Assembly: GCA_036971475.1 (NCBI GenBank)
Contig: JBAIZL010000005.1
Coordinates: 63,914,655-63,978,654, forward strand
Length of the DNA: 64,000 bases
DNA from: Prosapia bicincta
Taxonomy: Eukaryota; Arthropoda; Insecta; Hemiptera; Cercopidae
Reading direction: 5' to 3'
Shown here piece after piece: positions 38,201-59,800 of this stretch. Made by a program: the position numbers and the translations under genes. Every line of letters begins with the position of its first letter. Positions within the stretch are counted from its first letter, which is position 1. The notes under the pieces are model-generated. The model ran no database searches. It was not told the origin of the DNA and saw only the letters and a program-made list of their open reading frames with translations.

Positions 38201-39250
38201 TACAAAAAATGGATTTCTCATTTAAAAGGCATAATAAACGCAGAATCGACCATAGATTCGCATTGTGCTCTTAGAATTGATCTATAATAAGTATTATAAG
38301 AGCTATGGCAATTGTCATATATTTGCTCTAAAAAAATGCATGAATTATAGTTCATGGATTTTACGACTTCTACAAAAAATGGATTTCTCATTTAAAAGGC
38401 ATAATAAACGCAGAATCGACCATAGATTCGCATTGTGCTCTTAGAATTGATCTATAATAAGTATTATAGGAGCTATGGCAATTGTCATATATTTTCTCTT
38501 AAAAAATGCATGAATTATAGTTCATGTATTTTGCGATTTCTACAAAAAATGGATTTCTCATTTAAAAGGCATAATAAACGCAGAATCGACCATAGATTCG
38601 CATTGTGCTCTTAGAATTGATCTATAATAAGTATTATAGGAGGTATGGCAATTGTCATATATTTGCTCTAAAAAAAATGCATGAATTATAGTTCATGGAT
38701 TTTACGATTTCTACAAAAAATGGATTTATCATTTAAAAGGCATAATAAACGCAGAATCGACCAAAGATTCGCATTGTGCTCTTAGAATTGATCTATAATA
38801 AGTATTATAGGAGCTATCGCGATTGTCATATATTTTCTCTTAAAAAATGCATGAATTATAGTTCATGGATTCTGCGTTTTCTACAAAAAATGGATTTCTC
38901 ATTTAAAAGGCATAATAAACGCAGAATCGACCACAGATTCGGATTGTGCACTTAGAATTGATCTATAATAAGTATTATAGGAGCTATCGCAATTGTCATA
39001 TATTTGCTCTAAAAAAAATGCATGAATTATAGTTCATGGATTTTGCGATTTCTACAAAAAATGGATTTCTCATTTAAAAGGCATAATAAACGCAGAATCG
39101 ACCATAGATTCGCATTGTGCACTTAGAATTGATATATATTAAGTATTATAGGAGCTATCGCAATTGTCATATATTTTCTCTAAAAAAATGCATGAATTAT
39201 AGTTCATGGATTTTGCGATTTCTACAAAAAATGGATTTCTCATTTAAAGG
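32261..39250. repeat. Dispersed single-base-deletion monomer lineage
   Basis: A monomer with TTTAAAGG in place of TTTAAAAGG occurs at 32261, 34814, 37880 and 39243. It is each time followed by the AGAATTTATCTATATTAAG variant. Spacings are about 15, 18 and 8 monomers. The shared linked variants show a common origin with later gain and loss of monomers between copies. Confidence 0.75.
32640..33999. repeat. Tandem duplication of a 4-monomer unit (680 bp)
   Basis: GCTTTGTGCTC followed by a monomer with GAATTTAGTTCATGG (a 2-bp deletion) occurs at about 32640 and 33320. The rare TTGTGCTTTTAG lies at the same offset in both copies, near 33155 and 33835. The same GCTTTGTG block appears again near 35022 and 36725 (without the 2-bp deletion in the last), so the unit belongs to a wider family. 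Confidence 0.85.
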
Positions 39251-42200
39251 CATAATAAACGCAGAATCGACCATAGATTCGCATTGTGCACTTAGAATTT
39301 ATCTATATTAAGTATTATAAGAGCTATCGCAATTGTCATATATTTGCTCTAAAAAAAATGCATGAATTATAGTTCATGGATTCTGCGATTTCTACAAAAA
39401 ATGGATTTCTCATTTAAAAGGCATAATAAACGCAGAATCGACCATAGATTCGCATTGTGCTCTTAGAATTGATCTATAATAAGTATTATAGGAGCTATGG
39501 CAATTGTCATATATTTGCTCTAAAAAAAATGCATGAATTATAGTTCATGGATTCTGCGTTTTCTACAAAAAATGGATTTCTCATTTAAAAGGCATAATAA
39601 ACGCAGAATCGACCATAGATTCGCATTGTGCTCTTAGAATTGATCTATAATAAGTATTATAAGAGCTATGGCAATTGTCATATATTTGCTCTAAAAAAAT
39701 GCATGAATTATAGTTCATGGATTTTACGACTTCTACAAAAAATGGATTTCTCATTTAAAAGGCATAATAAACGCAGAATCGACCATAGATTCGCATTGTG
39801 CTCTTAGAATTGATCTATAATAAGTATTATAGGAGCTATGGCAATTGTCATATATTTTCTCTTAAAAAATGCATGAATTATAGTTCATGTATTTTGCGAT
39901 TTCTACAAAAAATGGATTTCTCATTTAAAAGGCATAATAAACGCAGAATCGACCATAGATTCGCATTGTGCTCTTAGAATTGATCTATAATAAGTATTAT
40001 AGGAGCTATGGCAATTGTCATATATTTTCTCTTAAAAAATGCATGAATTATAGTTCATGTATTTTGCGATTTCTACAAAAAATGGATTTCTCATTTAAAA
40101 GGCATAATAAACGCAGAATCGACCATAGATTCGCATTGTGCTCTTAGAATTGATCTATAATAAGTATTATAGGAGCTATGGCAATTGTCATATATTTGCT
40201 CTAAAAAAAATGCATGAATTATAGTTCATGGATTTTACGATTTCTACAAAAAATGGATTTCTCATTTAAAAGGCATAATAAACGCAGAATCGACCAAAGA
40301 TTCGCATTGTGCTCTTAGAATTGATCTATAATAAGTATTATAGGAGCTATCGCGATTGTCATATATTTTCTCTTAAAAAATGCATGAATTATAGTTCATG
40401 GATTCTGCGTTTTCTACAAAAAATGGATTTCTCATTTAAAAGGCATAATAAACGCAGAATCGACCACAGATTCGGATTGTGCACTTAGAATTGATCTATA
40501 ATAAGTATTATAGGAGCTATCGCAATTGTCATATATTTGCTCTAAAAAAAATGCATGAATTATAGTTCATGGATTTTGCGATTTCTACAAAAAAAGGATT
40601 TCTCATTTAAAAGGCATAATAAACGCAGAATCGACCATAGATTCGCATTGTGCACTTAGAATTGATATATATTAAGTATTATAGAAGCTATCGCAATTGT
40701 CATATATTTTCTCTAAAAAAATGCATGAATTATAGTTCATGGATTTTGCGATTTCTACAAAAAATGGATTTCTCATTTAAAAGGCATAATAAAAGCAGAA
40801 TCGACCATAGATTCGCATTGTGCACTTAGAATTGATCTATAATAGGTATTATAAGAGCTATCGCAATTGTCATATATTTTCTCTAAAAAAATGCATGGAT
40901 TATAGTTCATGGATTTTGCGATTTCTACAAAAAATGGATTTCTCATTTAAAAGGCATAATAAAAGCAGAATCGACCATAGATTCGCATTGTGCACTTAGA
41001 ATTGATCTATAATAAGTATTATAGGAGCTATCGCAACTGTCATATATTTTCTCTAAAAAAATGCATGAATTATAGTTCATGGATTTTACGATTTCTACAA
41101 AAAATGGATTTCTCATTTAATAGGCATAATAAACGCAGAATCGACCATAGATTCGCATTGTGCTCTTAGAATTGATCTATAATAAGTATTATAGGAGCTA
41201 TCGCAATTGTCATATATTTTCTCTAAAAAAATGCATGAATTATAGTTCATGGATTTTGCGATTTCTACAAAAAATGGATTTCTCATTTAAAAGGCATAAT
41301 AAACGCAGAATCGTCCATAGATTGGCATTGTGCTCTTAGAATTGATCTATAACAAGTATTATAGGAGCTATCGCGATTGTCATATATTTTCTCTTAAAAA
41401 ATGCATGAATTATAGTTCATGGATTTTACGATTTCTACAAAAAATGGATTTCTCATTTAAAAGGCATAATAAACGCAGAATCGACCATAGATTCGCATTG
41501 TGCTCTTAGAATTGATCTATAAAAGGTATTATAAGAGCTATGGCAATTGTCATATATTTGCTCTAAAAAAATGCATGAATTATAGTTCATGGATTTTACG
41601 ATTTCTACAAAAAATGGATTTCTCATTTAAAAGGCATAATAAACGCAGAATCGACCATAGATTCGGATTGTGCTCTTAGAATTGATCTATAATAAGTATT
41701 ATAGGAGCTATGGCAATTGTCATATATTTTCTCTTAAAAAATGCATGAATTATAGTTCATGGATTTTGCGATTTCTACAAAAAATGGATTTCTCATTTAA
41801 AAGGCATAATAAACGCAGAATCGTCCATAGATGCGCATTGTGCTCTTAGAATTGATCTATAATAAGTATTATAGGAGCTATGGCAACTGTCATATATTTG
41901 CTCTAAAAAAAATGCATGAATTATAGTTCATGGATTCTGCGATTTCTACAAAAAATGGATTTCTCATTTAAAAGGCATAATAAACGCAGAATCGACCATA
42001 GATTCGCATTGTGCTCTTAGAATTGATCTATAATAAGTATTATAGGAGCTATGGCAATTGTCATATATTTGCTCTAAAAAAAATGCATGAATTATAGTTC
42101 ATGGATTCTGCGTTTTCTACAAAAAATGGATTTCTCATTTAAAAGGCATAATAAACGCAGAATCGACCATAGATTCGCATTGTGCACTTAGAATTGATCT

Positions 42201-43121
42201 ATAATAAGTATTATAAGAGCTATCGCAATTGTCATATATTTGCTCTAAAAAAAATGCATGAATTATAGTTCATGGATTTTGCGATTTCTACAAAAAATGG
42301 ATTTCTCATTTAAAAGGCATAATAAACGCAGAATCGACCATAGATTCGCATTGTGCTCTTAGAATTGATCTATAATAAGTATTATAGGAGCTATCGCGAT
42401 TGTCATATATTTTCTCTTAAAAAATGCATGAATTATAGTTCATGGATTTTACGATTTCTACAAAAAATGGATTTCTCATTTAAAAGGCATAATAAACGCA
42501 GAATCGACCATAGATTCGCATTGTGCTCTTAGAATTGATCTATAATAAGTATTATAAGAGCTATGGCAATTGTCATATATTTGCTCTAAAAAAATGCATG
42601 AATTATAGTTCATGGATTTTACGACTTCTACAAAAAATGGATTTCTCATTTAAAAGGCATAATAAACGCAGAATCGACCATAGATTCGCATTGTGCTCTT
42701 AGAATTGATCTATAATAAGTATTATAGGAGCTATGGCAATTGTCATATATTTTCTCTTAAAAAATGCATGAATTATAGTTCATGTATTTTGCGATTTCTA
42801 CAAAAAATGGATTTCTCATTTAAAAGGCATAATAAACGCAGAATCGACCATAGATTCGCATTGTGCTCTTAGAATTGATCTATAATAAGTATTATAGGAG
42901 CTATGGCAATTGTCATATATTTGCTCTAAAAAAAATGCATGAATTATAGTTCATGGATTTTACGATTTCTACAAAAAATGGATTTCTCATTTAAAAGGCA
43001 TAATAAACGCAGAATCGACCATAGATTCGCATTGTGCTCTTAGAATTGATCTATAATAAGTATTATAGGAGCTATCGCGATTGTCATATATTTTCTCTTA
43101 AAAAATGCATGAATTATAGTT

Positions 43122-43127
43122 CATGGA
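43122..43127. repeat. Left target site duplication CATGGA
   Basis: The satellite reads ATAGTTCATGGA and then breaks into the element. The same 6 bases begin the right flank. Joining the flanks with one copy restores ATAGTTCATGGATTCTGCG, exactly as in uninterrupted monomers such as the one around 40350-40488. It overlaps the right arm of the monomer's CATGAA/TTCATG dyad. Confidence 0.9.
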
Positions 43128-43500
43128 AGTAGAAGTTGTGATACTTGGGCGCGGACCCACCCCTAACTCGGCCGCTACGTAACCTAGGACTATAGGGGTA
43201 GTTTTGGATGATGCTCAAGGTCACCCCAGCCGTGACCCCAGACCAAGGGGTGGTTTCGACCACGTTCAGGGGGGTAGGGGGTAGTTTTTCGAAAAAAAAA
43301 AAAAAAAAAATCGGCCGCTACGTAACCTAGGACTATAGGGGTAGTTTCGGATGATGCGGGCGGACGTCGTGATCCTGATCCAAGCCTTAGGGGTGGTTTT
43401 GACCACGTTTAGAGGGGTAGGGGGTAGTTTTTCGAAAAAATTTATTTCTAACCTACTAACCTAAGCTAGCCAAATTGGATCTAACCTAACCTAACCTATG
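43128..43500 (+). repeat. Outer terminal module, left arm
   Basis: After the terminal AGTAGAAGTTGTG comes a unit that starts TCGGCCGCTACG at 43168 and again at 43311 (period 143). Both copies contain CCTAGGACTATAGGGGTAG, GGATGATGC, a GGGGTGGTTT-GACCACGTT stretch and GGGGTAGTTTTTCGAAAA. The first ends in 19 A (43292-43310). The second leads into CTAACCTACTAACCTAAGC and three CTAAC units. The second part aligns with the inner module at 49390-49640. Confidence 0.85.
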
Positions 43501-43537
43501 TGTAGGGGGTGACCTCGGCTACGTTCAGGACCATCTC

Positions 43538-43670
43538 CGGGGGTAGCATCGGGGGTGGATTGGGGGGTGGGGGGTAGTTTTCGAAAAAATATTGGAAAAT
43601 CGTGTCTTGACCGATAGGGTATGTCTAGAGTGTATTAATGCGTCGGTAGGGGTAGTTTCACCTAGGGGTA
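43538..43670 (+). other. G-quadruplex motif and GGGGTAGTTT sequence
   Basis: 43539-43574 reads G5, 7-base loop, G5, 6-base loop, G6, 1-base loop, G6, which meets the standard four-run G-quadruplex pattern on the plus strand. Sequence after it repeats GGGGTAGTTT. The mirror motif lies at 55153-55188 on the minus strand. Confidence 0.8.
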
Positions 43671-43900
43671 GTTTTTACAAAAAATATGAAATTGCCGAAA
43701 ATCGATCGGATGGATCAACAGACAGTACAGGATATGTCTAGAGTCCCTTTCGACCATTGCGGGGGCGGGTTCACCAAGGGGTAGTTTTTACAAAAAATAT
43801 AAAATTGCCGAAAATCGATCGGTTGGATCAAATGACCGTATATGGTAATGTTAAAGTCTATTATGGAACATTGCGGGGGCGGGTTCACCTATTTTTAGAT
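43668..43900 (+). repeat. 113-bp direct repeat in left arm
   Basis: GTTTTTACAAAAAATAT followed by AAATTGCCGAAAATCGATCGG and GGATCAA starts at 43671 and 43784. Both copies are joined to a GCGGGGGCGGGTTCACC unit. A weaker third copy (GAAATTACCAAAAAATGATC) lies near 44731. The mirror lies at about 54827-55059. Confidence 0.8.
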
Positions 43901-43914
43901 TGTCAAAAATGATC

Positions 43915-44720
43915 GGGGTCCTAGGTAAAATCCACCCAGGCATCAGTTAAACCCGCCAAGGTAGAGCCAATATGGAGCACGCTATCGGTTAAAGCCAAAC
44001 CGAGCCCAGCCACCCGGCAGCTAGGCCTTAGGTAAAGCTAACACGGAGCTAGCCCTCGGGTAAAGCCATCACGAGGCCGATCCTTAGGTAAAGTAACCCC
44101 GGAATAGCTCCGGTGGTGGGGGTAACCTTTGGAAAGATTTAACGGTTATCTGATCACGTATCAGCGCCTGAGCGAGTCTAGGCAAGTAGTAGGCATACCC
44201 CAACTATAGTGTTCTACCCTAAATAAATTGGCTGATGCAGGGCAAGGGGCAAACCTGCAGAGTTAACACACTATCTTGGAGGTAGACCCACCCAAACCTC
44301 AGGCATAGCATCCCTGCAGCGGGGATTTAGCCAACCCAAGGCAGGCCCTTAAGTAAAGCCACCCGAGGAAAAGGCTTAAGGTAAAGCTACCTTGGAGCCT
44401 GGCCCTAGGTAAAGCCTCTTTGGAGGTAGACTTTAAGTAAAGCTACCCAAGAGTCTGGCCAGGCTGGTTGCTATATCAATTACAACCTATCGACCATGAC
44501 AAATACCTCCACCAAGTCCTAGGTAAAGCCATCCGGGTGTCAGACCATAGGTAAAGTAACCGCGGAGTCGGGCGTGAGGTAAAGCCAGCCAGGCCTTAGG
44601 TAAAGCTACCATGGAGTTAGACCATAGGTAAAGCAAACACGGAGCAAGGACTCAGGTAAAAGCCATCCCGAAGACAGCCGATAGGTAAAGTAACCCCGGA
44701 ATCTTACATTAAGTGAGGGT
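43915..44720 (+). repeat. TAAAGC degenerate repeat block (left arm)
   Basis: A degenerate unit with core AGGTAAAGCYA-CC-CGGAG recurs every 30-45 bp, for example in TTAGGTAAAGCTAACACGGAG near 44030 and again near 44400, 44520, 44590 and 44690. It is interrupted near 44100-44280 and 44460-44510 by unrelated sequence. The mirror block lies at 54007-54812. No function is evident and no frame is kept open. Confidence 0.8.
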
Positions 44721-45000
44721 GGTTATCAAATGAAATTACCAAAAAATGATCGGTTAGATCAAACGACCAACGACCTACATACAGTTCAAATAGTCAACAA
44801 GTTGAATCGACCAATCACAACGCAGGGGCCCGGTAGGCCTACGTAAACGGTTAATGTAAGACGAGAAGGCCCATATACCGTGTTAAACCAATATATACGA
44901 TAGCCCACATAATGTGTTAAACAAATACGCATGCAGGCATACATACATACTATGCAAGGCCGACATACTATGTCGGTAAATCACCGGCCAAAGCCTATAT

Positions 45001-45872
45001 GACCTGAGCTATTTTCACCTCTTCTATCAGGTTGATCCTGGCAACCGTCTAATATGGGAGGTACTATAGGGTACATCTACCAATGCATAACCTATCAAGC
45101 CCACGTAAAGATTTATGACGTATAGGCGACCGAGCGACTCTATGCAAGTATTAGGCCCACCCTAACTAGAGGGGCAAAGGGTTATGATTGCCAAACTCAA
45201 AATTGTCTATGCTACAAATTAATAAACAATGCGACAAAGCCTTATCGTTTGAGGGAATACGCTTGACCGTGTGCTTGACATGTGCAAACTTGCAGAGATA
45301 ACACATTATCTTAATACCGCAATGGCAATCGGTAACCGCTATAGCAGGCATAAAAACCAGCTTGGCTGTGTCGTTGTGAATCTAGGCGCGTGTTTATATT
45401 TTGATTACTGTATCAACTTACTATGTACTATTGGCATACCAAGGCCTACATATATATAATCAGAAATCAATGTAAATAATCAAATAGCCTCAATGGATAT
45501 ATCCTATAGCTGTAAATGTATCTAGATATAAAGAAATATATATGGAGAAACACTAATAAAGAGGCCTATCACAAAACGTGAATAAATATATGTTATAAAA
45601 CGATGCTAAGCCAACATGCATGCTATCATACATAGGCGTATATACCGTGTTAAGCCAACAAACGTGATAGCACACATAATGTGTTAAACAAATATGTATG
45701 TAAACCTGCATACATGCTAAGCCGACTTACATGAATCCCTAAATGCGCCTACTATGTCTGTAAACACAGGCCAAAACCTTTATGACCTGAGCTATTTTCA
45801 CCTCTTCTATCAGGTTGATCCTGGCAACCGTATAATATGGGAAGTACTATAGGGTACATTTACCAATGCATA
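45001..45872 (+). repeat. Duplicated ~90-bp segment with hairpin
   Basis: GACCTGAGCTATTTTCACCT through TACCAATGCATAA occurs at 45001-45090 and again at about 45783-45872, with few changes. It contains GGTTG (45030-45034), a 7-bp spacer and CAACC (45042-45046), a potential hairpin. Conservation of this piece inside otherwise degenerate repeats stands out. The mirror copies lie at 52855-52944 and 53637-53726. The stretch between the copies (45090-45780) holds diverged TATGTTAAGCC-like repeats and no gene. Confidence 0.85.
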
Positions 45873-46930
45873 ATCTATCACGCTCATGACGGTCAACAAA
45901 TACTACAATATAATTTAAAAAAACTTACGCAACCTATATACATACAGTGCTAAGCCATCATTCAGGTATATATATACTATGTTAAACCAGCATGCAATAT
46001 AATCTACATAGCCATATATACGCTGTTAAACCAATATGCAGGTTAACCTATATACATCCTGTATTAGGCAAATATCCCCGTTACCCGCATAGGCCTATGT
46101 TAAGCCAGGATGAATGATAGCTTATATAGTGTGTTAAACAAATATGCTTGTAAACCTACATAAATAATATGCTAAGCCTACATACTGTGCTAAACAGATA
46201 TGCGTGTAAACCTACATAAATACTATGCTAACCAGCATGGATGCTATCCTACATAGGCTTATATACTATGTTAGGCCTGCATACGTAATTACCCCATATA
46301 GTGTGTTAAATAAATATGCGTGTAAACCAAATAAATACTATGCTAAGCCAACATGCGTGCTATCATACTATGTTGGGCCTACATAATGTGTTAAACATAT
46401 ATGTGTGTAAGCTTGCATAGATATTATGCTAAGAAGACACGGGCCTACAAAGTATAACACATTATATCCGGTGCATAGTTTAGCTAAACGGCTATCACAC
46501 ACACTATCCTACAGGTACCACAAATTACCTGATACATAGCCTGGCTAATCATTAACACATAGTAGGCCCCAACACATAATATCCGGTGCATAGCCTCGCT
46601 AAATAAGCATAAACTCCCCAAAATTGGCTTATCAATTATGTATGGTCTAGATATAGTCACACATGTCATTTCAAAAGTCAGCTGGAAAGAAACACTAGCC
46701 TGGTATATACTATGTTAAACCAGCATGCAATATACTCTAAATAGCCATATATACGCTGTTAAACAAATATGCGTGTAAACCTACATAAATACCACGCCAA
46801 GCCAATATCCATGCTATCATAGATAGGCGTATATACTATGTTAGGCCTACATACTGCGTTAAACAAACATGTGTGTAAGCCTGCATACATATTATGCTAA
46901 GCCGACAAGGGCCTACAAATTATATCCAAT
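45600..46930 (+). repeat. ACTATGCTAAGCC / TGTGTTAAAC repeat block
   Basis: Degenerate units of about 35-45 bp alternate two phrases: TGTGTTAAACAAATATGCGTG-like, and CCTACATAAATACTATGCTAAGCC with ATGCTATCATACATAGGC. A local copy of ACCAGCATGCAATATA recurs near 45983 and 46719. The mirror lies at 51797-53127. Confidence 0.8.
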
Positions 46931-47770
46931 GCATAGTTTAGCTAATGGTTATCACACAGTAGCCTGACTACAACTTGCCCACATAATACCTGATACATAG
47001 CTAGACTAATCATTAACACATAGTATCCGAAGCGTAGCCCGACGATGGGTTAACATATAGTATCCGATAAGTAGCTTGAGAATGCCCCAACACATAATAT
47101 CCGGTGCATAGCCTCGCTAATGGTTAGCACATAGTAGCCGATGCTGAGCCTGGCTATGGAATATCACTTATTATCTGATGTGTAGCCTGACTAATGGTTA
47201 ACATAGCTAGGCTAATGATTAACATAAAGTATCCAATGCATGGCTTGGGTAATGTATATAGTTAGCCTGTGTGTTATCTATGTAAACCCACATACTATGC
47301 TAAGCCGGTTATCCATAGACACAGATCTATGGTGATGCAAGAGTAACCAGCACCCTGACAACAGATACCTAGCATGATCATAGCCTACATTGCCTGATAA
47401 CAGATGCCTAGTCTGACCATAGCCTACATAGCTAGACAAAAGATACATAACTAGACAATAGATACCTAGCCTGACAACAGACACCAATCTTGGAATCAAA
47501 TACATAGCCCGACAAACGATGCATAGCCCAACAAGGGCTAGCACATAGTATCCGAACCATAGATTGACTAATGGTTAACACATGGTATCCAAAGCATAGC
47601 TAGGCTAGTGAATAACTAGTGGTTAGTTTGACTATGGTTAACACACACACACAGTATCCGATGCGTAGCTTAGCTAACGGATAACACATAGTAACCTATG
47701 CTTAGCCTGACTAGGGCTAACACATATCCGACGAACGGCTCGACTAAGGCTAACACACAGTATCCGGTAC
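46930..47770 (+). repeat. ACACATAGTATCCGATGC repeat block
   Basis: Units of roughly 35-50 bp carry CACATAGTATCCGATGCATAGC with GCTAATGGTTA or GGCTAATGATTA, many times over the block. The part 47390-47530 has an ACAACAGATACCTAGCCTGA variant. An 88-codon frame on the minus strand (47278-47544) is explained by these repeats. The mirror lies at 50957-51797. Confidence 0.8.
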
Positions 47771-48110
47771 ACAACCTAGGATCGAATATGACGTCATCCA
47801 GGTGGAGAACAAGATGGTGGCAATGTTGATACCGACTTCAAAAAGGGCTATGGCCTGTGCAGGCTAGATCAAATAACCAACGTTTCAACTAAACTACTGT
47901 CATACGCGTAGTTTAACCAACCAACATACGTGAAGTTCAAACGAACAGCATTGACACCAAGTCCAAATAGGCTATGGCGGCTATGCCCAGATCAACGTAT
48001 CAGCTAATCAAAATGAAAAACCTACGCTAATCAACCAACATCTACACCGAAGTCAAATGGGTTATGGTTAGCGAAGGCACCGGCAAAAGCTTTAAGCCTT
48101 AGACATAATT
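47770..48110 (+). repeat. ~100-bp degenerate repeat with GCTATGG core
   Basis: Three diverged units begin GATACCGACTTCAAAAAGG (47829), GACACCAAGTCCAAATAGG (about 47951) and ACACCGAAGTCAAATGGG (about 48042). Each is followed by CTATGG-like sequence and GATCAA-ACCAACG-like sequence. The region opens with GACGTCATCCAGGTGGAG. The mirror lies at 50617-50957. Confidence 0.7.
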
Positions 48111-49040
48111 ATAGCTATCAACGCGTACCAAAATAGCCATGCAGAAACCGTCAAGGCCATTACACATATTGTCCAGGTATGTTCTCCATCAAACCGAGAC
48201 TTTAGACACCATCTCTGTAAAACAGCTAACAAATTATACTCTACCACAATAGGTATGTCAAAACTGTTACCGGATCATAATCTAAGACAGCGGTTACGTA
48301 ACGCCCTTTATCAATTTAAGACCTTAAGAGATATCTTCGTAAAGACAGCTACCAATTCATACTATATCACAATAGTTACGTTAGAGCCACCGCTGCTCAC
48401 CCTACCATAATAGCCACGTACAGACGGTTAATATTGTATAACCTATCACAAGACTTATGTAAAAACGGCTAGGCATAACCTGTCACACAATAACTGCGTA
48501 AAGGCAGCTAACAAGGCCCCTACCCCATTAAAATAGCTACGAAAAGATAACATCCAATACATACCCTATCATATTAGCTATGTAAAGACAATAACTGCGT
48601 AAAGGCAGCTAACAATGCCTACCCCTTTAAAATAGCTACGAAAAGATAACAACCAATACATACCCTATCATAATAGCTATGTAAAGACAGCTAAAGATGC
48701 ATAACCTAACTCAGTAATGATTGCTATTAAATAATGAACCATTACACTAGCCACGTAAAGACAGCTACCAACACCACAATAGCTACGTAAAAACAGTTAT
48801 CGATCCGTGACCAAGATAATACCTACGTAAGACCTATATCAGTGCTAAGACAATAGCTCCGTAAGGAAAACCTACCACTTCATGAACTACGACAACAGCA
48901 AGGTGTGGACGGCTACCAATACATTACTTATCACAACTACCAACACATAACTCGTCACACTAGCTAAGTAAATAGCGCTACGATTGAATAGCCTATCACA
49001 CAGGCCAAATGAGGGTCACTAACTAAACCACCACAATATC
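48110..49040 (+). repeat. ATAGCTACGTAAAGACAGCTA repeat block
   Basis: Degenerate units of about 40-45 bp read CACAATAGCTACGTAAAGAC then AGCTACCAATACATAACC. A recent 101-bp tandem duplication is included: CAATAACTGCGTAAAGGCAG at 48488 and 48589. The mirror lies at 49687-50617. Confidence 0.8.
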
Positions 49041-49084
49041 TCTGTACATGGCAGATGGCGTGATGATCCTCATCTTTATCGCAC

Positions 49085-49340
49085 ACCTAACAGTAGGTTA
49101 GAAGCACTCTGGCTAGCTTAGGTTAGTGGGTTGAAAATAATTTTTTCTAAAAACTACCCCTCTAGACGTGGTTGAACACCCAACAGTAGGTTAGGTTAGA
49201 AGCACTCTGGCTAGCTTAGGTTAGTGGGTTGAAAATAATTTTTCCTAAAAACTACCCCTCTAGACGTGGTTGAACCCTCCCCCAAGGCTACGATCAAGGT
49301 CACATCGACCGCCTGCATCATCCAAAACCACCCCTAACTT
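49085..49340 (-). repeat. Inner terminal module, left arm
   Basis: The module contains a 98-bp tandem repeat (GAAGCACTCTGGCTAGCTTA at 49101 and 49199) and ends in ACCACCCCTAACTT. On the minus strand it aligns with the outer module: GGATGATGC, then GGGCGGACG or AGGCGGTCG, ACCACGT-TAGAGGGGTAG, a TTTTT-AAAAA-TTATTT stretch and CACTAACCTAAGCTAGCC appear in the same order. Confidence 0.8.
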
Positions 49341-49386
49341 TCAAAGGTTGGTCGTATCTACGGGCATCACTGACCTGTGGTTGTAG
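49341..49386. other. Asymmetric spacer at the palindrome centre
   Basis: 46 bp of unpaired sequence lie between CCACCCCTAACTT and AAGTTAGGGGTGG. Its right edge continues into the arm as TAGAAGTT (49384-49391), the same 8 bases found two bases inside the outer terminus AGTAGAAGTT. The left edge (TCAAAGG) has no such match, so the right half seems to keep more of an original end. Confidence 0.85.
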
Positions 49387-49642
49387 AAGTTAGGGGTGGT
49401 TTTGGATGATGCAGGCGGTCGATGTGACCTTGATCGTAGCCTTGGGGGAGGGTTCAACCACGTCTAGAGGGGTAGTTTTTAGGAAAAATTATTTTCAACC
49501 CACTAACCTAAGCTAGCCAGAGTGCTTCTAACCTAACCTACTGTTGGGTGTTCAACCACGTCTAGAGGGGTAGTTTTTAGAAAAAATTATTTTCAACCCA
49601 CTAACCTAAGCTAGCCAGAGTGCTTCTAACCTACTGTTAGGT
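49387..49642 (+). repeat. Inner terminal module, right arm
   Basis: This is the mirror of 49085-49340. It begins AAGTTAGGGGTGG and includes CACGTCTAGAGGGGTAGTTT and CACTAACCTAAGCTAGCC twice. It is oriented opposite to the outer module at the right end, so the right half is itself bounded by related inverted ends. Confidence 0.8.
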
Positions 49643-49686
49643 GTGCGATAAAGATGAGGATCATCACGCCATCTGCCATGTACAGA

Positions 49687-52600
49687 GATATTGTGGTGGT
49701 TTAGTTAGTGACCCTCATTTGGCCTGTGTGATAGGCTATTCAATCGTAGCGCTATTTACTTAGCTAGTGTGACGAGTTATGTGTTGGTAGCTGTGATAAG
49801 TAATGTATTGGTAGCCGTCCACACCTTGCTGTTGTCGTAGTTCATGAAGTGGTAGGTTTTCCTTACGGAGCTATTGTCTTAGCACTGATATAGGTCTTAC
49901 GTAGGTATTATCTTGGTCACGGATCGATAACTGTTTTTACGTAGCTATTGTGGTGTTGGTAGCTGTCTTTACGTGGCTAGTGTAATGGTTCATTATTTAA
50001 TAGCAATCATTACTGAGTTAGGTTATGCATCTTTAGCTGTCTTTACATAGCTATTATGATAGGGTATGTATTGGTTGTTATCTTTTCGTAGCTATTTTAA
50101 AGGGGTAGGCATTGTTAGCTGCCTTTACGCAGTTATTGTCTTTACATAGCTAATATGATAGGGTATGTATTGGATGTTATCTTTTCGTAGCTATTTTAAT
50201 GGGGTAGGGGCCTTGTTAGCTGCCTTTACGCAGTTATTGTGTGACAGGTTATGCCTAGCCGTTTTTACATAAGTCTTGTGATAGGTTATACAATATTAAC
50301 CGTCTGTACGTGGCTATTATGGTAGGGTGAGCAGCGGTGGCTCTAACGTAACTATTGTGATATAGTATGAATTGGTAGCTGTCTTTACGAAGATATCTCT
50401 TAAGGTCTTAAATTGATAAAGGGCGTTACGTAACCGCTGTCTTAGATTATGATCCGGTAACAGTTTTGACATACCTATTGTGGTAGAGTATAATTTGTTA
50501 GCTGTTTTACAGAGATGGTGTCTAAAGTCTCGGTTTGATGGAGAACATACCTGGACAATATGTGTAATGGCCTTGACGGTTTCTGCATGGCTATTTTGGT
50601 ACGCGTTGATAGCTATAATTATGTCTAAGGCTTAAAGCTTTTGCCGGTGCCTTCGCTAACCATAACCCATTTGACTTCGGTGTAGATGTTGGTTGATTAG
50701 CGTAGGTTTTTCATTTTGATTAGCTGATACGTTGATCTGGGCATAGCCGCCATAGCCTATTTGGACTTGGTGTCAATGCTGTTCGTTTGAACTTCACGTA
50801 TGTTGGTTGGTTAAACTACGCGTATGACAGTAGTTTAGTTGAAACGTTGGTTATTTGATCTAGCCTGCACAGGCCATAGCCCTTTTTGAAGTCGGTATCA
50901 ACATTGCCACCATCTTGTTCTCCACCTGGATGACGTCATATTCGATCCTAGGTTGTGTACCGGATACTGTGTGTTAGCCTTAGTCGAGCCGTTCGTCGGA
51001 TATGTGTTAGCCCTAGTCAGGCTAAGCATAGGTTACTATGTGTTATCCGTTAGCTAAGCTACGCATCGGATACTGTGTGTGTGTGTTAACCATAGTCAAA
51101 CTAACCACTAGTTATTCACTAGCCTAGCTATGCTTTGGATACCATGTGTTAACCATTAGTCAATCTATGGTTCGGATACTATGTGCTAGCCCTTGTTGGG
51201 CTATGCATCGTTTGTCGGGCTATGTATTTGATTCCAAGATTGGTGTCTGTTGTCAGGCTAGGTATCTATTGTCTAGTTATGTATCTTTTGTCTAGCTATG
51301 TAGGCTATGGTCAGACTAGGCATCTGTTATCAGGCAATGTAGGCTATGATCATGCTAGGTATCTGTTGTCAGGGTGCTGGTTACTCTTGCATCACCATAG
51401 ATCTGTGTCTATGGATAACCGGCTTAGCATAGTATGTGGGTTTACATAGATAACACACAGGCTAACTATATACATTACCCAAGCCATGCATTGGATACTT
51501 TATGTTAATCATTAGCCTAGCTATGTTAACCATTAGTCAGGCTACACATCAGATAATATGTGATATTCCATAGCCAGGCTCAGCATCGGCTACTATGTGC
51601 TAACCATTAGCGAGGCTATGCACCGGATATTATGTGTTGGGGCATTCTCAAGCTACTTATCGGATACTATATGTTAACCCATCGTCGGGCTACGCTTCGG
51701 ATACTATGTGTTAATGATTAGTCTAGCTATGTATCAGGTATTATGTGGGCAAGTTGTAGTCAGGCTACTGTGTGATAACCATTAGCTAAACTATGCATTG
51801 GATATAATTTGTAGGCCCTTGTCGGCTTAGCATAATATGTATGCAGGCTTACACACATGTTTGTTTAACGCAGTATGTAGGCCTAACATAGTATATACGC
51901 CTATCTATGATAGCATGGATATTGGCTTGGCGTGGTATTTATGTAGGTTTACACGCATATTTGTTTAACAGCGTATATATGGCTATTTAGAGTATATTGC
52001 ATGCTGGTTTAACATAGTATATACCAGGCTAGTGTTTCTTTCCAGCTGACTTTTGAAATGACATGTGTGACTATATCTAGACCATACATAATTGATAAGC
52101 CAATTTTGGGGAGTTTATGCTTATTTAGCGAGGCTATGCACCGGATATTATGTGTTGGGGCCTACTATGTGTTAATGATTAGCCAGGCTATGTATCAGGT
52201 AATTTGTGGTACCTGTAGGATAGTGTGTGTGATAGCCGTTTAGCTAAACTATGCACCGGATATAATGTGTTATACTTTGTAGGCCCGTGTCTTCTTAGCA
52301 TAATATCTATGCAAGCTTACACACATATATGTTTAACACATTATGTAGGCCCAACATAGTATGATAGCACGCATGTTGGCTTAGCATAGTATTTATTTGG
52401 TTTACACGCATATTTATTTAACACACTATATGGGGTAATTACGTATGCAGGCCTAACATAGTATATAAGCCTATGTAGGATAGCATCCATGCTGGTTAGC
52501 ATAGTATTTATGTAGGTTTACACGCATATCTGTTTAGCACAGTATGTAGGCTTAGCATATTATTTATGTAGGTTTACAAGCATATTTGTTTAACACACTA

Positions 52601-54812
52601 TATAAGCTATCATTCATCCTGGCTTAACATAGGCCTATGCGGGTAACGGGGATATTTGCCTAATACAGGATGTATATAGGTTAACCTGCATATTGGTTTA
52701 ACAGCGTATATATGGCTATGTAGATTATATTGCATGCTGGTTTAACATAGTATATATATACCTGAATGATGGCTTAGCACTGTATGTATATAGGTTGCGT
52801 AAGTTTTTTTAAATTATATTGTAGTATTTGTTGACCGTCATGAGCGTGATAGATTATGCATTGGTAAATGTACCCTATAGTACTTCCCATATTATACGGT
52901 TGCCAGGATCAACCTGATAGAAGAGGTGAAAATAGCTCAGGTCATAAAGGTTTTGGCCTGTGTTTACAGACATAGTAGGCGCATTTAGGGATTCATGTAA
53001 GTCGGCTTAGCATGTATGCAGGTTTACATACATATTTGTTTAACACATTATGTGTGCTATCACGTTTGTTGGCTTAACACGGTATATACGCCTATGTATG
53101 ATAGCATGCATGTTGGCTTAGCATCGTTTTATAACATATATTTATTCACGTTTTGTGATAGGCCTCTTTATTAGTGTTTCTCCATATATATTTCTTTATA
53201 TCTAGATACATTTACAGCTATAGGATATATCCATTGAGGCTATTTGATTATTTACATTGATTTCTGATTATATATATGTAGGCCTTGGTATGCCAATAGT
53301 ACATAGTAAGTTGATACAGTAATCAAAATATAAACACGCGCCTAGATTCACAACGACACAGCCAAGCTGGTTTTTATGCCTGCTATAGCGGTCACCGATT
53401 GCCATTGCGGTATTAAGATAATGTGTTATCTCTGCAAGTTTGCACATGTCAAGCACACGGTCAAGCGTATTCCCTCAAACGATAAGGCTTTGTCGCATTG
53501 TTTATTAATTTGTAGCATAGACAATTTTGAGTTTGGCAATCATAACCCTTTGCCCCTCTAGTTAGGGTGGGCCTAATACTTGCATAGAGTCGCTCGGTCG
53601 CCTATACGTCATAAATCTTTACGTGGGCTTGATAGGTTATGCATTGGTAGATGTACCCTATAGTACCTCCCATATTAGACGGTTGCCAGGATCAACCTGA
53701 TAGAAGAGGTGAAAATAGCTCAGGTCATATAGGCTTTGGCCGGTGATTTACCGACATAGTATGTCGGCCTTGCATAGTATGTATGTATGCCTGCATGCGT
53801 ATTTGTTTAACACATTATGTGGGCTATCGTATATATTGGTTTAACACGGTATATGGGCCTTCTCGTCTTACATTAACCGTTTACGTAGGCCTACCGGGCC
53901 CCTGCGTTGTGATTGGTCGATTCAACTTGTTGACTATTTGAACTGTATGTAGGTCGTTGGTCGTTTGATCTAACCGATCATTTTTTGGTAATTTCATTTG
54001 ATAACCACCCTCACTTAATGTAAGATTCCGGGGTTACTTTACCTATCGGCTGTCTTCGGGATGGCTTTTACCTGAGTCCTTGCTCCGTGTTTGCTTTACC
54101 TATGGTCTAACTCCATGGTAGCTTTACCTAAGGCCTGGCTGGCTTTACCTCACGCCCGACTCCGCGGTTACTTTACCTATGGTCTGACACCCGGATGGCT
54201 TTACCTAGGACTTGGTGGAGGTATTTGTCATGGTCGATAGGTTGTAATTGATATAGCAACCAGCCTGGCCAGACTCTTGGGTAGCTTTACTTAAAGTCTA
54301 CCTCCAAAGAGGCTTTACCTAGGGCCAGGCTCCAAGGTAGCTTTACCTTAAGCCTTTTCCTCGGGTGGCTTTACTTAAGGGCCTGCCTTGGGTTGGCTAA
54401 ATCCCCGCTGCAGGGATGCTATGCCTGAGGTTTGGGTGGGTCTACCTCCAAGATAGTGTGTTAACTCTGCAGGTTTGCCCCTTGCCCTGCATCAGCCAAT
54501 TTATTTAGGGTAGAACACTATAGTTGGGGTATGCCTACTACTTGCCTAGACTCGCTCAGGCGCTGATACGTGATCAGATAACCGTTAAATCTTTCCAAAG
54601 GTTACCCCCACCACCGGAGCTATTCCGGGGTTACTTTACCTAAGGATCGGCCTCGTGATGGCTTTACCCGAGGGCTAGCTCCGTGTTAGCTTTACCTAAG
54701 GCCTAGCTGCCGGGTGGCTGGGCTCGGTTTGGCTTTAACCGATAGCGTGCTCCATATTGGCTCTACCTTGGCGGGTTTAACTGATGCCTGGGTGGATTTT
54801 ACCTAGGACCCC
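49687..54812 (-). repeat. Right-arm mirror of the internal repeat blocks
   Basis: In order: TAGCTGTCTTTACGTAGCTAT repeats (49687-50617); the GCTATGG-core repeats (50617-50957); GCATCGGATACTATGTGTTA repeats (50957-51797); GGCTTAGCATAGTATTTATG repeats (51797-53127); the duplicated hairpin segment (52855-52944 and 53637-53726); and GGCTTTACCTAAGG repeats (54007-54812). An 88-codon frame at 51183-51449 is the exact mirror of the one in the left arm and is not taken as a gene. Confidence 0.85.
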
Positions 54813-55229
54813 GATCATTTTTGACAATCTAAAAATAGGTGAACCCGCCCCCGCAATGTTCCATAATAGACTTTAACATTACCATATACGGTCATTTGAT
54901 CCAACCGATCGATTTTCGGCAATTTTATATTTTTTGTAAAAACTACCCCTTGGTGAACCCGCCCCCGCAATGGTCGAAAGGGACTCTAGACATATCCTGT
55001 ACTGTCTGTTGATCCATCCGATCGATTTTCGGCAATTTCATATTTTTTGTAAAAACTACCCCTAGGTGAAACTACCCCTACCGACGCATTAATACACTCT
55101 AGACATACCCTATCGGTCAAGACACGATTTTCCAATATTTTTTTGAAAACTACCCCCCACCCCCCAATCCACCCCCGATGCTACCCCCAGAGATGGTCCT
55201 GAACGTAGCCGAGGTCACCCCCTACACAT

Positions 55230-55595
55230 AGGTTAGGTTAGGTTAGATCCAATTTGGCTAGCTTAGGTTAGTAGGTTAGAAATAATTTTTTTCGAAAAAC
55301 TACCCCCTACCCCTCTAAACGTGGTCAAAACCACCCCTAAGGCTTGGATCAGGATCACGACGTCCGCCCGCATCATCCGAAACTACCCCTATAGTTCTAG
55401 GTTACGTAGCGGCCGATTTTTTTTTTTTTTTCGAAAAACTACCCCCTACCCCCCTGAACGTGGTCGAAACCACCCCTTGGTCTGGGGTCACGGCTGGGGT
55501 GACCTTGAGCATCATCCAAAACTACCCCTATAGTCCTAGGTTACGTAGCGGCCGAGTTAGGGGTGGGTCCGCGCCCAAGTATCACAACTTCTACT
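55230..55595 (-). repeat. Outer terminal module, right arm
   Basis: This is the mirror of the left outer module, with T15 (55417-55431) in place of A19. It ends AACTTCTACT at the right target site duplication. Confidence 0.85.
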
Positions 55596-55601
55596 CATGG
55601 A
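55596..55601. repeat. Right target site duplication CATGGA
   Basis: This follows the last element base (AACTTCTACT) and continues as TTCTGCGTTTTC, the next bases of the interrupted monomer. It is identical to the left copy. Confidence 0.9.
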
Positions 55602-56890
55602 TTCTGCGTTTTCTACAAAAAATGGATTTCTCATTTAAAAGGCATAATAAACGCAGAATCGACCACAGATTCGGATTGTGCACTTAGAATTGATCTATAA
55701 TAAGTATTATAGGAGCTATCGCAATTGTCATATATTTTCTCTAAAAAAATGCATGAATTATAGTTCATGGATTTTGCGATTTCTACAAAAAATGGATTTC
55801 TCATTTAAAAGGCATAATAAACGCAGAATCGACCATAGATTCGCATTGTGCTCTTAGAATTGATCTATAATAAGTATTATAGGAGCTATCGCAATTGTCA
55901 TATATTTTCTCTAAAAAAATGCATGAATTATAGTTCATGGATTTTGCGATTTCTACAAAAAATGGATTTCTCATTTAAAAGGCATAATAAACGCAGAATC
56001 GTCCATAGATTCGCATTGTGCTCTTAGAATTGATCTATAATAAGTATTATAGGAGCTATGGCAATTGTCATATATTTGCTCTAAAAAAAATGCATGAATT
56101 ATAGCTCATGGATTTTGCGATTTCTACAAAAAATGGATTTCTCATTTAAAAGGCATAATAAACGCAGAATCGACCATAGATTCGCATTGTGCTCTTAGAA
56201 TTGATCTATAATAAGTATTATAGGAGCTATGGCGATTGTCATATATTTTCTCTTAAAAAATGCACGAATTATAGTTCATGGATTTTACGATTTCTACAAA
56301 AAATGGATTTCTCATTTAAAAGGCATAATAAACGCAGAATCGACCATAGATTCGCATTGTGCTCTTAGAATTGATCTATAATAAGTATTATAGGAGCTAT
56401 GGCAATTGTCATATATTTTCTCTTAAAAATTGCATGAATTATAGTTCATGTATTTTGCGATTTCTACAAAAAACGGATTTCTCATTTAAAAGGCATAATA
56501 AACGGAGAATCGACCATAGATTCGCATTGTGCACTTAGAATTGATCTATATTAAGTATTATAAGAGCTATCGCAATTGTCATATATTTGCTCTAAAAAAA
56601 ATGCATGAATTATAGTTCATGGATTTTGCGATTTCTACAAAAAATGGATTTCTCATTTAAAAGGCATAATAAAAGCAGAATCGACCATAGATTCGCATTG
56701 TGCTCTTAGAATTGATCTATAATAAGTATTATAGGAGCTATGGCAATTGTCATATATTTGCTCTAAAAAAAATGCATTAATTATAGTTCATGGATTCTGC
56801 GTTTTCTACAAAAAATGGATTTCTCATTTAAAAGGCATAATAAACGCAGAATCGACCATAGATTCGGATTGTGCACTTAGAATTGATCTA

Positions 56891-59800
56891 TAATAAGCAT
56901 TATAAGAGCTATCGCAATTGTCATATATTTGCTCTAAAAAAAATGCATGAATTATAGTTCATGGATTTTGCGATTTCTACAAAAAATGGATTTCTCATTT
57001 AAAAGGCATAATAAACGCAGAATCGACCATAGATTCGCATTGTGCACTTAGAATTGATCTATAATAAGTATTATAGGAGCTATGGCAATTGTCATATATT
57101 TTCTCTTAAAAATTGCATGAATTATAGTTCATGTATTTTGCGATTTCTACAAAAAACGGATTTCTCATTTAAAAGGCATAATAAACGGAGAATCGACCAT
57201 AGATTCGCAATGTGCACTTAGAATTGATCTATATTAAGTATTATAAGAGCTATCGCAATTGTCATATATTTGCTCTAAAAAAAATGCATGAATTATAGTT
57301 CATGGATTTTGCGATTTCTACAAAAAATGGATTTCTCATTTAAAAGGCATAATAAACGCAGAATCGACCATAGATTCGCATTGTGCTCTTAGAATTGATC
57401 TATAATAAGTATTATAGGAGCTATGGCAATTGTCATATATTTGCTCTAAAAAAAATGCATTAATTATAGTTCATGGATTCTGCGTTTTCTACAAAAAATG
57501 GATTTCTCATTTAAAAGGCATAATAAACGCAGAATCGACCATAGATTCGGATTGTGCACTTAGAATTGATCTATAATAAGCATTATAAGAGCTATCGCAA
57601 TTGTCATATATTTGCTCTAAAAAAAATGCATGAATTATAGTTCATGGATTTTGCGATTTCTACAAAAAATGGATTTCTCATTTAAAAGGCATAATAAACG
57701 CAGGATCGACCATAGATTCGCATTGTGCACTTAGAATTGATCTATAATAAGTATTATAGGAGCTATCGCAATTGTCATATATTTTCTCTAAAAAAATGCA
57801 TGAATTATATTTCATGGATTTTACGATTTCTACAAAAAATGGATTTCTCATTTAATAGGCATAATAAACGCAGAATCGACCATAGATTCGCATTGTGTTC
57901 TTAGAATTGATCTATAATAAGTATTATAGGAGCTATCGCAATTGTCATATATTTTCTCTAAAAAAATGCATGAATTATAGTTCATGGATTTTGCGATTTC
58001 TACAAAAAATGGATTTCTCATTTAAAAGGCATAATAAACGCAGAATCGACCATAGATTCGCATTGTGCTCTTAGAATTGATCTATAATAAGTATTATAGG
58101 AGCTATCGCAATTGTCATATATTTTCTCTTAAAAAATGCATGAATTATAGTTCATGGATTTTACGATTTCTACAAAAAATTGATTTCTCATTTAAAAGGC
58201 ATAATAAACGCAGAATCGACCATAGATTCGCATTGTGCACTTAGAATTGATCTATAATAAGTATTATAGGAGCTATCGCAATTGTCATATATTTTCTCTA
58301 AAAAAATGCATGAATTATAGTTCATGGATTTTGCGATTTCTACAAAAAATGGATTTCTCATTTAAAAGGCATAATAAACGCAGAATCTACCATAGATTCG
58401 CATTGCGCACTTAGAATTGATCTATAATAAGTATTATAGGAGCTATCGCAATTGTCATATATTTTCTCTAAAAAAATGCATGAATTATAGTTCATGGATT
58501 TTGCGATTTCTACAAAAAATGGATTTCTCATTTAAAAGGTATAATAAACGCAGAATCGACCATAGATTCGCATTGTGCTCTTAGAATTGATCTATATTAA
58601 GTATTATAGGAGCTATTGCAATTGTCATATATTTTCTCTAAAAAAATGCATGAATTATAGTTCATGGATTTTGCGATTTCTACAAAAAATGGATTTCTCA
58701 TTTAAAAGGCATAATAAACGCAGAATCGACCATAGATTCGCATTGTGCTCTTAGAATTGATCTAATTTAAGTATTATAGGAGCAATCGCAATTGTCATAT
58801 ATTTTCTCTTAAAAAATGCATGAATTATAGTTCATGGATTTTACGATTTCTACAAAAAATTGATATCTCATTTAAAAGGCATAATAAACGCAGAATCGAC
58901 CATAGATTCGCATTGTGCACTTATAATTGATCTATAATAAGTATTATAAGAGCTATCGCAATTGTCATACATTTGCTCTAAAAAAAATGCATGAATTATA
59001 GTTCATGGATTTTGCGATTTCTACAAAAAATGGATTTCTCATTTAAAAGGCATAATAAACGCAGAATCGACCATAGATTCGCATTGTGCACTTAGAATTG
59101 ATCTATAATAAGTATTATAGGAGCTATCGCAATTGTCATATATTTTCTCTAAAAAAATGCATGAATTATAGTTCATGGATTTTGCGATTTCTACAAAAAA
59201 TGGATTTCTCATTTAAAAGGCATAATAAACGCAGAATCGACCATAGATTCGCATTGTGCTCTTAGAATTGATCTATAATAAGTATTATAGGAGCTATGGC
59301 AATTGTCATATATTTGCTCTAAAAAAAATGCATTAATTATAGTTCATGGATTCTGCGTTTTCTACAAAAAATGGATTTCTCATTTAAAAGGCATAATAAA
59401 CGCAGAATCGACCATAGATTCGGATTGTGCACTTAGAATTGATCTATAATAAGCATTATAAGAGCTATCGCAATTGTCATATATTTGCTCTAAAAAAAAT
59501 GCATGAATTATAGTTCATGGATTTTGCGATTTCTACAAAAAATGGATTTCTCATTTAAAAGGCATAATAAACGCAGAATCGACCATAGATTCGCATTGTG
59601 CACTTAGAATTGATCTATAATAAGTATTATAGGAGCTATGGCAATTGTCATATATTTTCTCTTAAAAATTGCATGAATTATAGTTCATGTATTTTGCGAT
59701 TTCTACAAAAAACGGATTTCTCATTTAAAAGGCATAATAAACGGAGAATCGACCATAGATTCGCATTGTGCACTTAGAATTGATCTATATTAAGTATTAT

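What the first reader, a model, noticed from the sequence alone, without database searches (positions are those of the whole stretch)
43128..55595. 12.47 kb palindromic transposon-like element inside a satellite
Seen: perfect inverted termini, arms of about 6.2 kb with only a handful of differences, a 46-bp spacer, an identical 6-bp flanking duplication, and satellite continuing in the same orientation and phase on both sides. Known: foldback elements have long inverted repeats made of short tandem repeats, but those I know are much shorter; Polinton/Maverick elements make 6-bp duplications and have AG/CT ends but code for several proteins. Inference: a giant non-coding foldback element, possibly a new family or a non-autonomous partner of an autonomous element elsewhere in the genome.
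Basis: partly seen in the sequence, partly recalled or inferred. Interest (0 to 1): 0.92.

Follow-up and report, generated by a model that had tools for sequence, protein, structure and literature searches.

The report
Palindromic passenger of a split Polinton
A 12.5-kb gene-free DNA palindrome sits in a satellite array, and the same genome holds other palindromes with the same kind of ends and similar length, as well as two kinds of gene-carrying Polinton virus-like insertions, one with a DNA polymerase and one with integrase and capsid genes, which likely copy and insert the palindrome.

Summary
Window 43128-55595 is a 12,468-bp near-perfect palindrome (arms differ by 7 substitutions and one 4-bp indel; 46-bp spacer) flanked by CATGGA; removing it restores a satellite monomer identical to five others. 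Its 2.2-Gb genome holds relatives: 20 further end-pairs were read and, with the window, 21 of 21 have exact 6-bp duplications. Fifteen are giant palindromes (11.4-13.2 kb). Six are not: five carry a type B DNA polymerase, one carries integrase, packaging ATPase and double-jelly-roll capsid genes but no polymerase. All share outer ends and similar length. None of 37 scored polymerase copies lies within 25 kb of 125 scored integrase or 150 capsid matches, while 44 of 90 close integrase copies have a capsid match nearby. So the foldback is the non-coding partner of a Polinton/adintovirus-like family whose genes appear split over two kinds of element. A 35-bp centre motif (up to 3 mismatches) occurs 562 times. 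Arms agree within an element (98.8-99.97%) but mostly 85-89% between elements, which suggests (untested) copying through a hairpin. Packaging, hairpin copying and mobilisation in trans are inferred; gene conversion remains a rival for arm identity.

The parts
43122..43127 (+). left copy of the 6-bp target-site duplication CATGGA
43128..49340 (+). left arm of the palindrome (about 6.2 kb), non-coding
43128..43624 (+). outer end shared with gene-carrying elements (88% and 92% over about 490 bp with the two ends of the polymerase element C79:346235075)
   Evidence: terminal 200 bp 98-99% to that element
43168..43440 (+). 1.9 tandem copies of a 143-bp unit in the outer end
   Evidence: TRF run in a script
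49187..49336 (-). inner end of left arm: inverted, 79% copy of part of the outer end (arm 209-366)
49341..49386 (+). 46-bp central spacer; with its flanks 94-100% alike in the pairs of palindrome centres shown
   Evidence: a 35-bp motif from this centre occurs 562 times in the genome with up to 3 mismatches
49387..55595 (-). right arm of the palindrome
49391..49540 (+). inner end of right arm: mirror image of 49187-49336
   Evidence: limits worked out from the pairing of the arms
55103..55595 (-). right outer end, counterpart of 43128-43624
   Evidence: limits worked out from the pairing of the arms
55596..55601 (+). right copy of the 6-bp target-site duplication CATGGA
1..43127 (+). 170-bp satellite array left of the insertion
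55602..64000 (+). same satellite array, same orientation and phase, right of the insertion

Best explanation
The palindrome is a non-coding member of a Polinton/adintovirus-like family that has many copies in this genome, and it is likely copied and inserted in trans by the proteins of gene-carrying members that have the same ends. Shown: three kinds of element of similar length, each flanked by exact 6-bp duplications and sharing outer ends. Kind P carries a type B DNA polymerase (protein-primed by its kinship, inferred) and a few small genes. Kind S (one copy read, apart from a 450-bp unread gap; others seen only as linked integrase and capsid matches) carries an rve-type integrase, an A32-type packaging ATPase and a double-jelly-roll capsid protein, and no polymerase. 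Kind N, to which the window belongs, is a palindrome of about 12.3 kb without genes. Inferred: the system is split, with the polymerase from P and the integrase and capsid from S. Inferred: the shared outer end is replication origin and integrase site; protein-primed copying starts at the end and displaces a single strand. For N that strand would snap back into a 6.2-kb hairpin with a loop of about 50 nt, and copying round the hairpin would rebuild both arms from one template, which would explain why arms are nearly identical within an element while elements differ from each other. Inferred: the common length of P, S and N reflects one capsid, so N would travel as a satellite of the virus-like particle. 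The satellite array is only where this copy landed.
For: Terminal 200 bp against the own genome: 81 matches from 40 scored of 1,871 candidates. 23-bp end pattern, up to 2 mismatches: 36 forward + 33 reverse, reversed-pattern control 0. From these two lists 26 facing pairs, window included, 9,823-13,155 bp long; with seven more (one with both ends extrapolated by 21 bp), 33 pairs, median 12,407 bp, 30 of 33 within 11.3-13.7 kb. TSDs exact in 21 of 21 pairs read. Palindromes 15 of 21, mean 12,289 bp, SD 503; coding 6 of 21, mean 12,672, SD 525; no difference shown (P = 0.15, small n). Polymerase PF03175 1.9e-47 in the one scanned; 37 of 37 scored genomic copies have an open frame of 1,267-1,285 aa (the best of 1,964 candidates); dN/dS 0.07-0.14 in 6 comparisons of 4 ORFs. 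S element: rve 2.3e-9, Pox_A32 1.3e-6, DJR capsid 3.9e-73. Split: 0 of 37 polymerase copies within 25 kb of 125 integrase or 150 capsid matches; 44 of 90 close integrase copies (24 of the top 32) have a capsid match on the same strand within 12 kb, 28 of the 45 distances being 8.3-8.6 kb. Method control: one polymerase of another type lies 2.2 kb from an integrase. Ends: S end against P and N ends 95-97% over 200 bp; mean identity over 480 bp N-N 90.6%, N-coding 90.7%, coding-coding 91.5%. Hairpin copying: arms 98.8-99.97% alike within palindromes, mostly 85-89% between (one pair 95%); left/right differences in the outer 480 bp: median 0 in 15 palindromes, 5.0% in 6 coding elements, P = 0.02. 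Centre motif: 562 matches, control 0; centre found in 12 of 12 palindromes where it could be checked.
Against: Only one S element was read at both ends; three further integrase copies have a family end at a fitting distance (C333, C260; C340, compared by eye). Only 11 of 37 polymerase copies have a listed end. 46 of 90 close integrase copies have no capsid match in the scored list. The genome searches score only the best candidates, so a rarer single-element form could be missed, and the one found shows that such a form exists for a related type. The arm/end contrast has an exception on each side: coding element C146:313012722 has ends that do not differ (0/480), palindrome C313:76276354 has outer ends differing by 6.2%. 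Gene conversion between close inverted arms would also keep them alike. Unread gaps of 450-710 bp remain in the S element and in three of the five P elements. There are no expression, particle or replication data.
Confidence: 0.72

Rival explanations
1. P, S and N elements are all defective derivatives of a single-piece helper virus or Polinton (polymerase and integrase on one molecule) that infects from outside or is missing from the assembly; there is no true division of labour.
For: Drosophila-associated adintoviruses 1 and 2 are single contigs of 14.6 and 13.3 kb, the first described with polymerase, integrase, capsid and protease (PMC8363768, passages read). One polymerase-integrase neighbour pair of a related type exists in this genome. 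Searches score only the best candidates.
Against: Polymerase copies evolve under strong constraint (dN/dS 0.07-0.14) and the 37 scored frames are open, as if they themselves supply function; 0 of 37 are linked to an integrase or capsid match.
Confidence: 0.2
2. The palindromes are ordinary non-autonomous foldback transposons with Polinton ends, moved by the same integrase but never packaged; arms are kept identical by gene conversion after insertion, and the length similarity is coincidence.
For: Arms built of degenerate tandem repeats as in foldback elements. Closely spaced inverted repeats convert readily (general knowledge). Leaving out C313:76276354, arm differences are somewhat denser in the outer 480 bp than at 1.5-3.5 kb (13 of 6,686 against 27 of 27,951, P = 0.04), as conversion centred on the loop might give.
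Against: Palindrome length stays near that of the coding elements, and the inner part with the loop is among the best conserved stretches, which a mere by-product would not need. Neither point is decisive.
Confidence: 0.25
3. Assembly or sequencing artefact (fold-back read, missed adapter).
For: Long perfect palindromes are a known artefact class (general knowledge).
Against: 15 palindromes with exact 6-bp duplications of differing sequence, arms that differ at some sites, and 562 centre motifs.
Confidence: 0.01
4. A foldback of another superfamily with 6-bp duplications (IS3EU/GingerRoot).
For: 6-bp duplications (PMC10045372, passages read).
Against: Those have TA..TA or occasionally TG..CA termini; here AG..CT, and partners carry Polinton-type genes.
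Confidence: 0.02

Closest known systems
Polinton/Maverick elements and adintoviruses
   Same: 6-bp duplications, long inverted ends, and in the family as a whole a type B DNA polymerase, rve integrase, A32-type ATPase and double-jelly-roll capsid
   Different: Described members carry polymerase and integrase on one element (PMC4028283 and PMC8363768, passages read). Relatives that lack a recognisable polymerase and integrase have been noted (PMC11071296, passages read). Here polymerase and integrase are found on separate elements with common ends, with a gene-free palindrome as a third kind
Foldback elements (FB, Galileo, Tetris, Tm1)
   Same: Long inverted repeats with internal tandem repeats; Tetris has no apparent coding capacity (PMC4079207, PMC3169594, PMC3688188, passages read)
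   Different: Tetris and Tm1 have 8-10 bp duplications, and known foldbacks are tied to Mutator or P-type transposases; here 6 bp, Polinton-type partners and arms of 6.2 kb
Bidnaviruses and bidna-like Vesanto virus
   Same: PolB-encoding insect DNA viruses with divided genomes and inverted terminal repeats (PMC4061559, PMC8363768, passages read); P elements also encode a weakly NS3-like protein
   Different: Bidnaviruses have a parvovirus-type capsid and helicase and ssDNA segments of about 6 kb; here a double-jelly-roll capsid and integrated 12-13 kb elements
Adenovirus symmetric recombinants (SYREC) and hairpin forms of adeno-associated virus
   Same: Palindromic molecules with two copies of one viral end, replicated with viral help (SYREC recalled; one search found no paper on it)
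   Different: Not integrated chromosomal families; nothing about this comparison was tested

Membership tests
Polinton/Maverick (adintovirus-like), window element | 6-bp target-site duplication | tested here: met
   CATGGA; 20 of 20 relatives read
   AGTAG...CTACT; same in the 20 further pairs read
Polinton/Maverick (adintovirus-like), window element | own DNA polymerase, integrase, capsid | tested here: not met
   no coding frame beyond chance; so it is a non-coding relative, not a full member
Polinton/Maverick, the gene-carrying partners taken together | PolB, rve integrase, A32-type ATPase, DJR capsid | tested here: met
   (on two kinds of element)
Polinton/Maverick, the gene-carrying partners | PolB and integrase on the same element | tested here: not met
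   0 of 37 scored PolB copies within 25 kb of 125 scored integrases; no integrase among the frames listed for the five P elements (three have unread gaps of 0.6-0.7 kb)
Foldback elements | long inverted repeats with internal tandem repeats | tested here: met
Foldback elements of the Mutator type | 8-10 bp target-site duplication | tested here: not met
   6 bp in 21 of 21
IS3EU/GingerRoot | TA..TA or TG..CA termini | tested here: not met
   AG..CT; definition from PMC10045372
Bidnaviridae | parvovirus-type capsid and NS1 helicase | tested here: not met
   none among the ORFs given to Pfam; the capsid is DJR
Virus satellite packaged by a helper | satellite DNA found in helper particles | not testable with these tools
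   only length agreement

The most novel reading that the evidence does not exclude
A three-part Polinton: a divided double-stranded DNA virus-like genome with a polymerase segment, an integrase-and-capsid segment, and a gene-free palindromic segment that replicates as a giant hairpin, resets both arms at every round, fits the same capsid and has spread as hundreds of chromosomal copies.
Probability: 0.42. Interest if true: 0.95.

Novelty: new variant of a known kind. Interest (0 to 1): 0.88.

Why it matters
Polintons are described as elements that carry their own polymerase and integrase. Here polymerase and integrase/capsid genes sit on different elements with common ends, which would be a divided Polinton genome and a possible parallel to the segmented, PolB-encoding bidna-like viruses. 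The palindromes would be a large class of Polinton satellites that I did not find described, and their length gives a direct test of whether Polintons in this animal still form particles. They would also be a natural record of hairpin-templated DNA copying: one arm could be read against the other to date each insertion.

Tried and rejected
Dead ends: Rfam on the window (none); pattern scans of viral contigs (none; five 17-base matches, taken as chance and not used) and genome contigs (none); polymerase relatives in viral contigs (none); polymerase against solved structures (three weak matches to antibodies, irrelevant); Pfam on arm frames (nothing above cut-off); DNA folding of the outer 400 bases (z 0.59, no special structure); literature searches for a non-autonomous Polinton by name (0 papers), for end motifs as printed strings (seven papers, unrelated by title), for divided Polintons or adintoviruses, for palindromic adenovirus forms and for palindromic Polintons (listing only). 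The main adintovirus paper is not held. Considered and rejected: artefact; other 6-bp superfamilies; a role of the satellite (arm and satellite share no match).

Mixed results kept: C313:76276354 and C146:313012722 go against the simple arm/end contrast. Twelve of the 33 facing pairs (five, seven) were not read and count for length only. In one search C313:76276354 was left out of the outer/inner comparison but kept in the median test.
Full report
What was claimed and what is there. The sequence shows exactly that: arms 43128-49340 and 49387-55595, spacer 49341-49386, seven substitutions and one 4-bp poly-A difference between arms, CATGGA on both sides. The joined flanks give a 170-bp stretch identical to five others in the array, and a 600-bp joined stretch matches the array at up to 98.8%. 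The insertion is clean and the satellite is only its landing place; arm and satellite share no match.

Anatomy. The arms are non-coding: the longest stop-to-stop frame is 104 aa, and 64 of 100 shuffles reach that. They are a patchwork of degenerate tandem repeats (periods near 28, 37, 41, 56, 98-100, 113 and 143 bp) which between arm positions 500 and 5900 all but point one way: 430 direct against 3 inverted 12-mer pairs. The inner end of each arm is an inverted 79% copy of part of the outer end, so each arm looks like an old end-flanked unit of about 6.2 kb, two of which were joined head to head; that history is inferred.

The family. The window lies in a 2.2-Gb genome. The terminal 200 bp give 81 matches there (40 of 1,871 candidates scored; full-length matches 94-99% identical), and a 23-bp end pattern with up to two mismatches occurs 36 times forward and 33 times reverse, with none for the reversed control. 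From these two lists 26 facing pairs, the window included, lie 9.8-13.2 kb apart; the end of another member adds seven pairs, giving 33 with a median of 12,407 bp, 30 of them between 11.3 and 13.7 kb. I read 20 of these pairs besides the window; 12 were not read. All 20 have their own exact 6-bp duplication, as does the window.

Three kinds of element. Fifteen of the 21 are palindromes, with arms 98.8-99.97% identical over most of their length. Six are not. Five carry a type B DNA polymerase (PF03175, 1.9e-47 for the one scanned; three others among the matches, the fifth by its frames) with a 101-aa protein (seen in the two of them listed at that length), a protein with a sub-threshold match to densovirus NS3 (best 5.9e-5 in four scanned, below Pfam's cut-off) and a 170-254 aa protein of unknown kind; in one of the five the polymerase frame is broken. 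The sixth, C286:7914460-7927309, carries an rve integrase, a Pox_A32-type ATPase, matrixin and phospholipase A2-like domains and a double-jelly-roll capsid protein interrupted by a stop, and no polymerase. I call the kinds N (non-coding), P (polymerase) and S (integrase and structural).

Same ends, similar length. The first 200 bp of the S element match P and N ends at 95-97%; the window's first 200 bp match the P element C79:346235075 at 98-99% and the end beside the S-type integrase of C333 at 96%. Over 480 bp, N ends are on average no more like each other (90.6%) than like the coding ends (90.7%), so ends have been exchanged between kinds or share a recent source. One palindrome, C313:76276354, whose two outer ends differ by 6.2% while most of its arms do not, looks like such an exchange. 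Beyond the ends, N arms are largely unrelated to the two P elements compared: weak stretches of about 67% and short end-like pieces and, in C333:99859529, a further 0.6 kb at 84%. Mean lengths are 12,289 bp (15 N) and 12,672 bp (6 coding), not distinguishable with these numbers (P = 0.15).

Polymerase and integrase lie apart. The P polymerase has 37 scored copies in the genome, all with an open frame of 1,267-1,285 aa and 96-100% identity; only the best of 1,964 candidates are scored, so intactness describes the best copies. Four of these frames compared pairwise give dN/dS 0.07-0.14. The S integrase has 125 scored matches, 90 of them at 78% identity or more, and the capsid query 150. Of the 90, 44 have a capsid match on the same strand within 12 kb, 28 of the 45 distances being 8.3-8.6 kb; 46 have none in the scored list; of the 35 more distant integrases 15 have one. 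None of the 37 polymerase copies lies within 25 kb of an integrase or capsid match. A family-level search (76 loci scored) finds one polymerase of another type (1,374 aa) 2.2 kb from an integrase, so the single-element arrangement can be seen by this method; for other polymerase types the integrase may be too distant for my query. Eleven of 37 polymerase copies and four integrase copies have a listed family end at a fitting distance.

How the palindrome likely works. Polintons have been suggested to replicate by protein priming through a single-stranded intermediate (PMC4061559, passages read). A displaced strand of an N element would fold into a 6.2-kb hairpin with one origin end; copying round it would make both arms from one template. 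This predicts arms nearly identical within an element though elements differ. That is seen: 98.8-99.97% within against mostly 85-89% between elements. The inner part is well conserved: 94-100% around the loop in the same-orientation pairs shown for eight centres, and 94-98% in the inner 1 kb, as against 69% at the lowest and 95% in the outer 250 bp, in a profile of seven other palindromes against the window. In the outer 480 bp the two ends differ by a median of 0 in 15 palindromes and 5.0% in six coding elements (P = 0.02), with one exception on each side. Gene conversion after insertion could give the same picture and remains the main rival for this step. A 35-bp centre motif with up to three mismatches occurs 562 times (control 0; each need not be a complete element); of the 100 places listed, six have a listed family end within 9 kb, all at 5.8-6.6 kb. 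The centre is present in 12 of 12 palindromes where it could be checked (ten stretches, the window, C79:364492032; three have it in unread gaps). Its 25-base core is absent from the 12 stretches of coding elements; a 19-base flank has one match with up to four edits in each of four of them, taken as chance.

Host. The nearest named relatives of the polymerase are from the leafhopper Macrosteles quadrilineatus (60% over 98% of the length); beetles follow, and the very best match is unnamed. The host is therefore probably an insect, perhaps a hemipteran. This is an inference from one protein.

Comparison with the known. Polintons and adintoviruses are described with polymerase and integrase together (PMC4028283, PMC8363768; passages read), though relatives lacking both have been noted (PMC11071296, passages read). 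Foldback elements resemble the arms but Tetris and Tm1 have 8-10 bp duplications (PMC4079207, PMC3169594; passages read). Divided PolB-encoding DNA viruses exist among bidnaviruses and Vesanto virus (PMC4061559, PMC8363768; passages read), with other capsids or smaller segments. Palindromic adenovirus recombinants (SYREC) are recalled and came from no call. I saw no divided Polinton and no palindromic Polinton satellite in the searches, of which I read the listings and the passages named here.

Verdict. That the family is a divided Polinton with P, S and N parts is well supported but not proved; packaging, hairpin copying and mobilisation in trans are inferred.

Noticed in passing
G000 C350:61592883 and C350:61595040: A polymerase of another type (1,374 aa frame) lies 2.2 kb from an integrase 67% like the S one: a single-element arrangement in the same genome.
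   Followed up: partly
own genome: Dozens of capsid copies at 92% identity to the query share the same scores and are scattered over many contigs, which suggests a recent burst of a second S-like lineage; an integrase group at 64-67% shows the same.
   Followed up: no
L052:5446-6384: The S element has a predicted fibre-like protein: matches to YadA stalk (9.5e-14) and phage T7 tail-fibre N-terminal domain (2.8e-12), in an element that also has matrixin and phospholipase A2-like domains.
   Followed up: no
G000 C313:247041602 and 247048059: Two family ends on the same strand 6.4 kb apart, possibly a rearranged or nested palindrome.
   Followed up: no
G000 C313:63547511, 63673968, 64106120, 64137464: Four integrase copies lie within about 0.4 Mb of the window, three of them with stop codons.
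   Followed up: no
window 18808 and 20514: Two irregular spacings (348 and 214 bp) in an otherwise regular 170-bp satellite; 191 distinct sequences among 300 units.
   Followed up: no
window 43480-43500 and 49190-49200: Short runs of CCTAA-like repeats inside the arms, resembling the insect telomere unit (recalled); may be chance.
   Followed up: no
L017:2647-3276, L041:2248-2877, L037:2402-3034, L046:4010-4654: A 210-215 aa P-element protein with a sub-threshold match to densovirus NS3 (E-values 5.9e-5 to 0.0056), a gene also found in bidnaviruses.
   Followed up: partly
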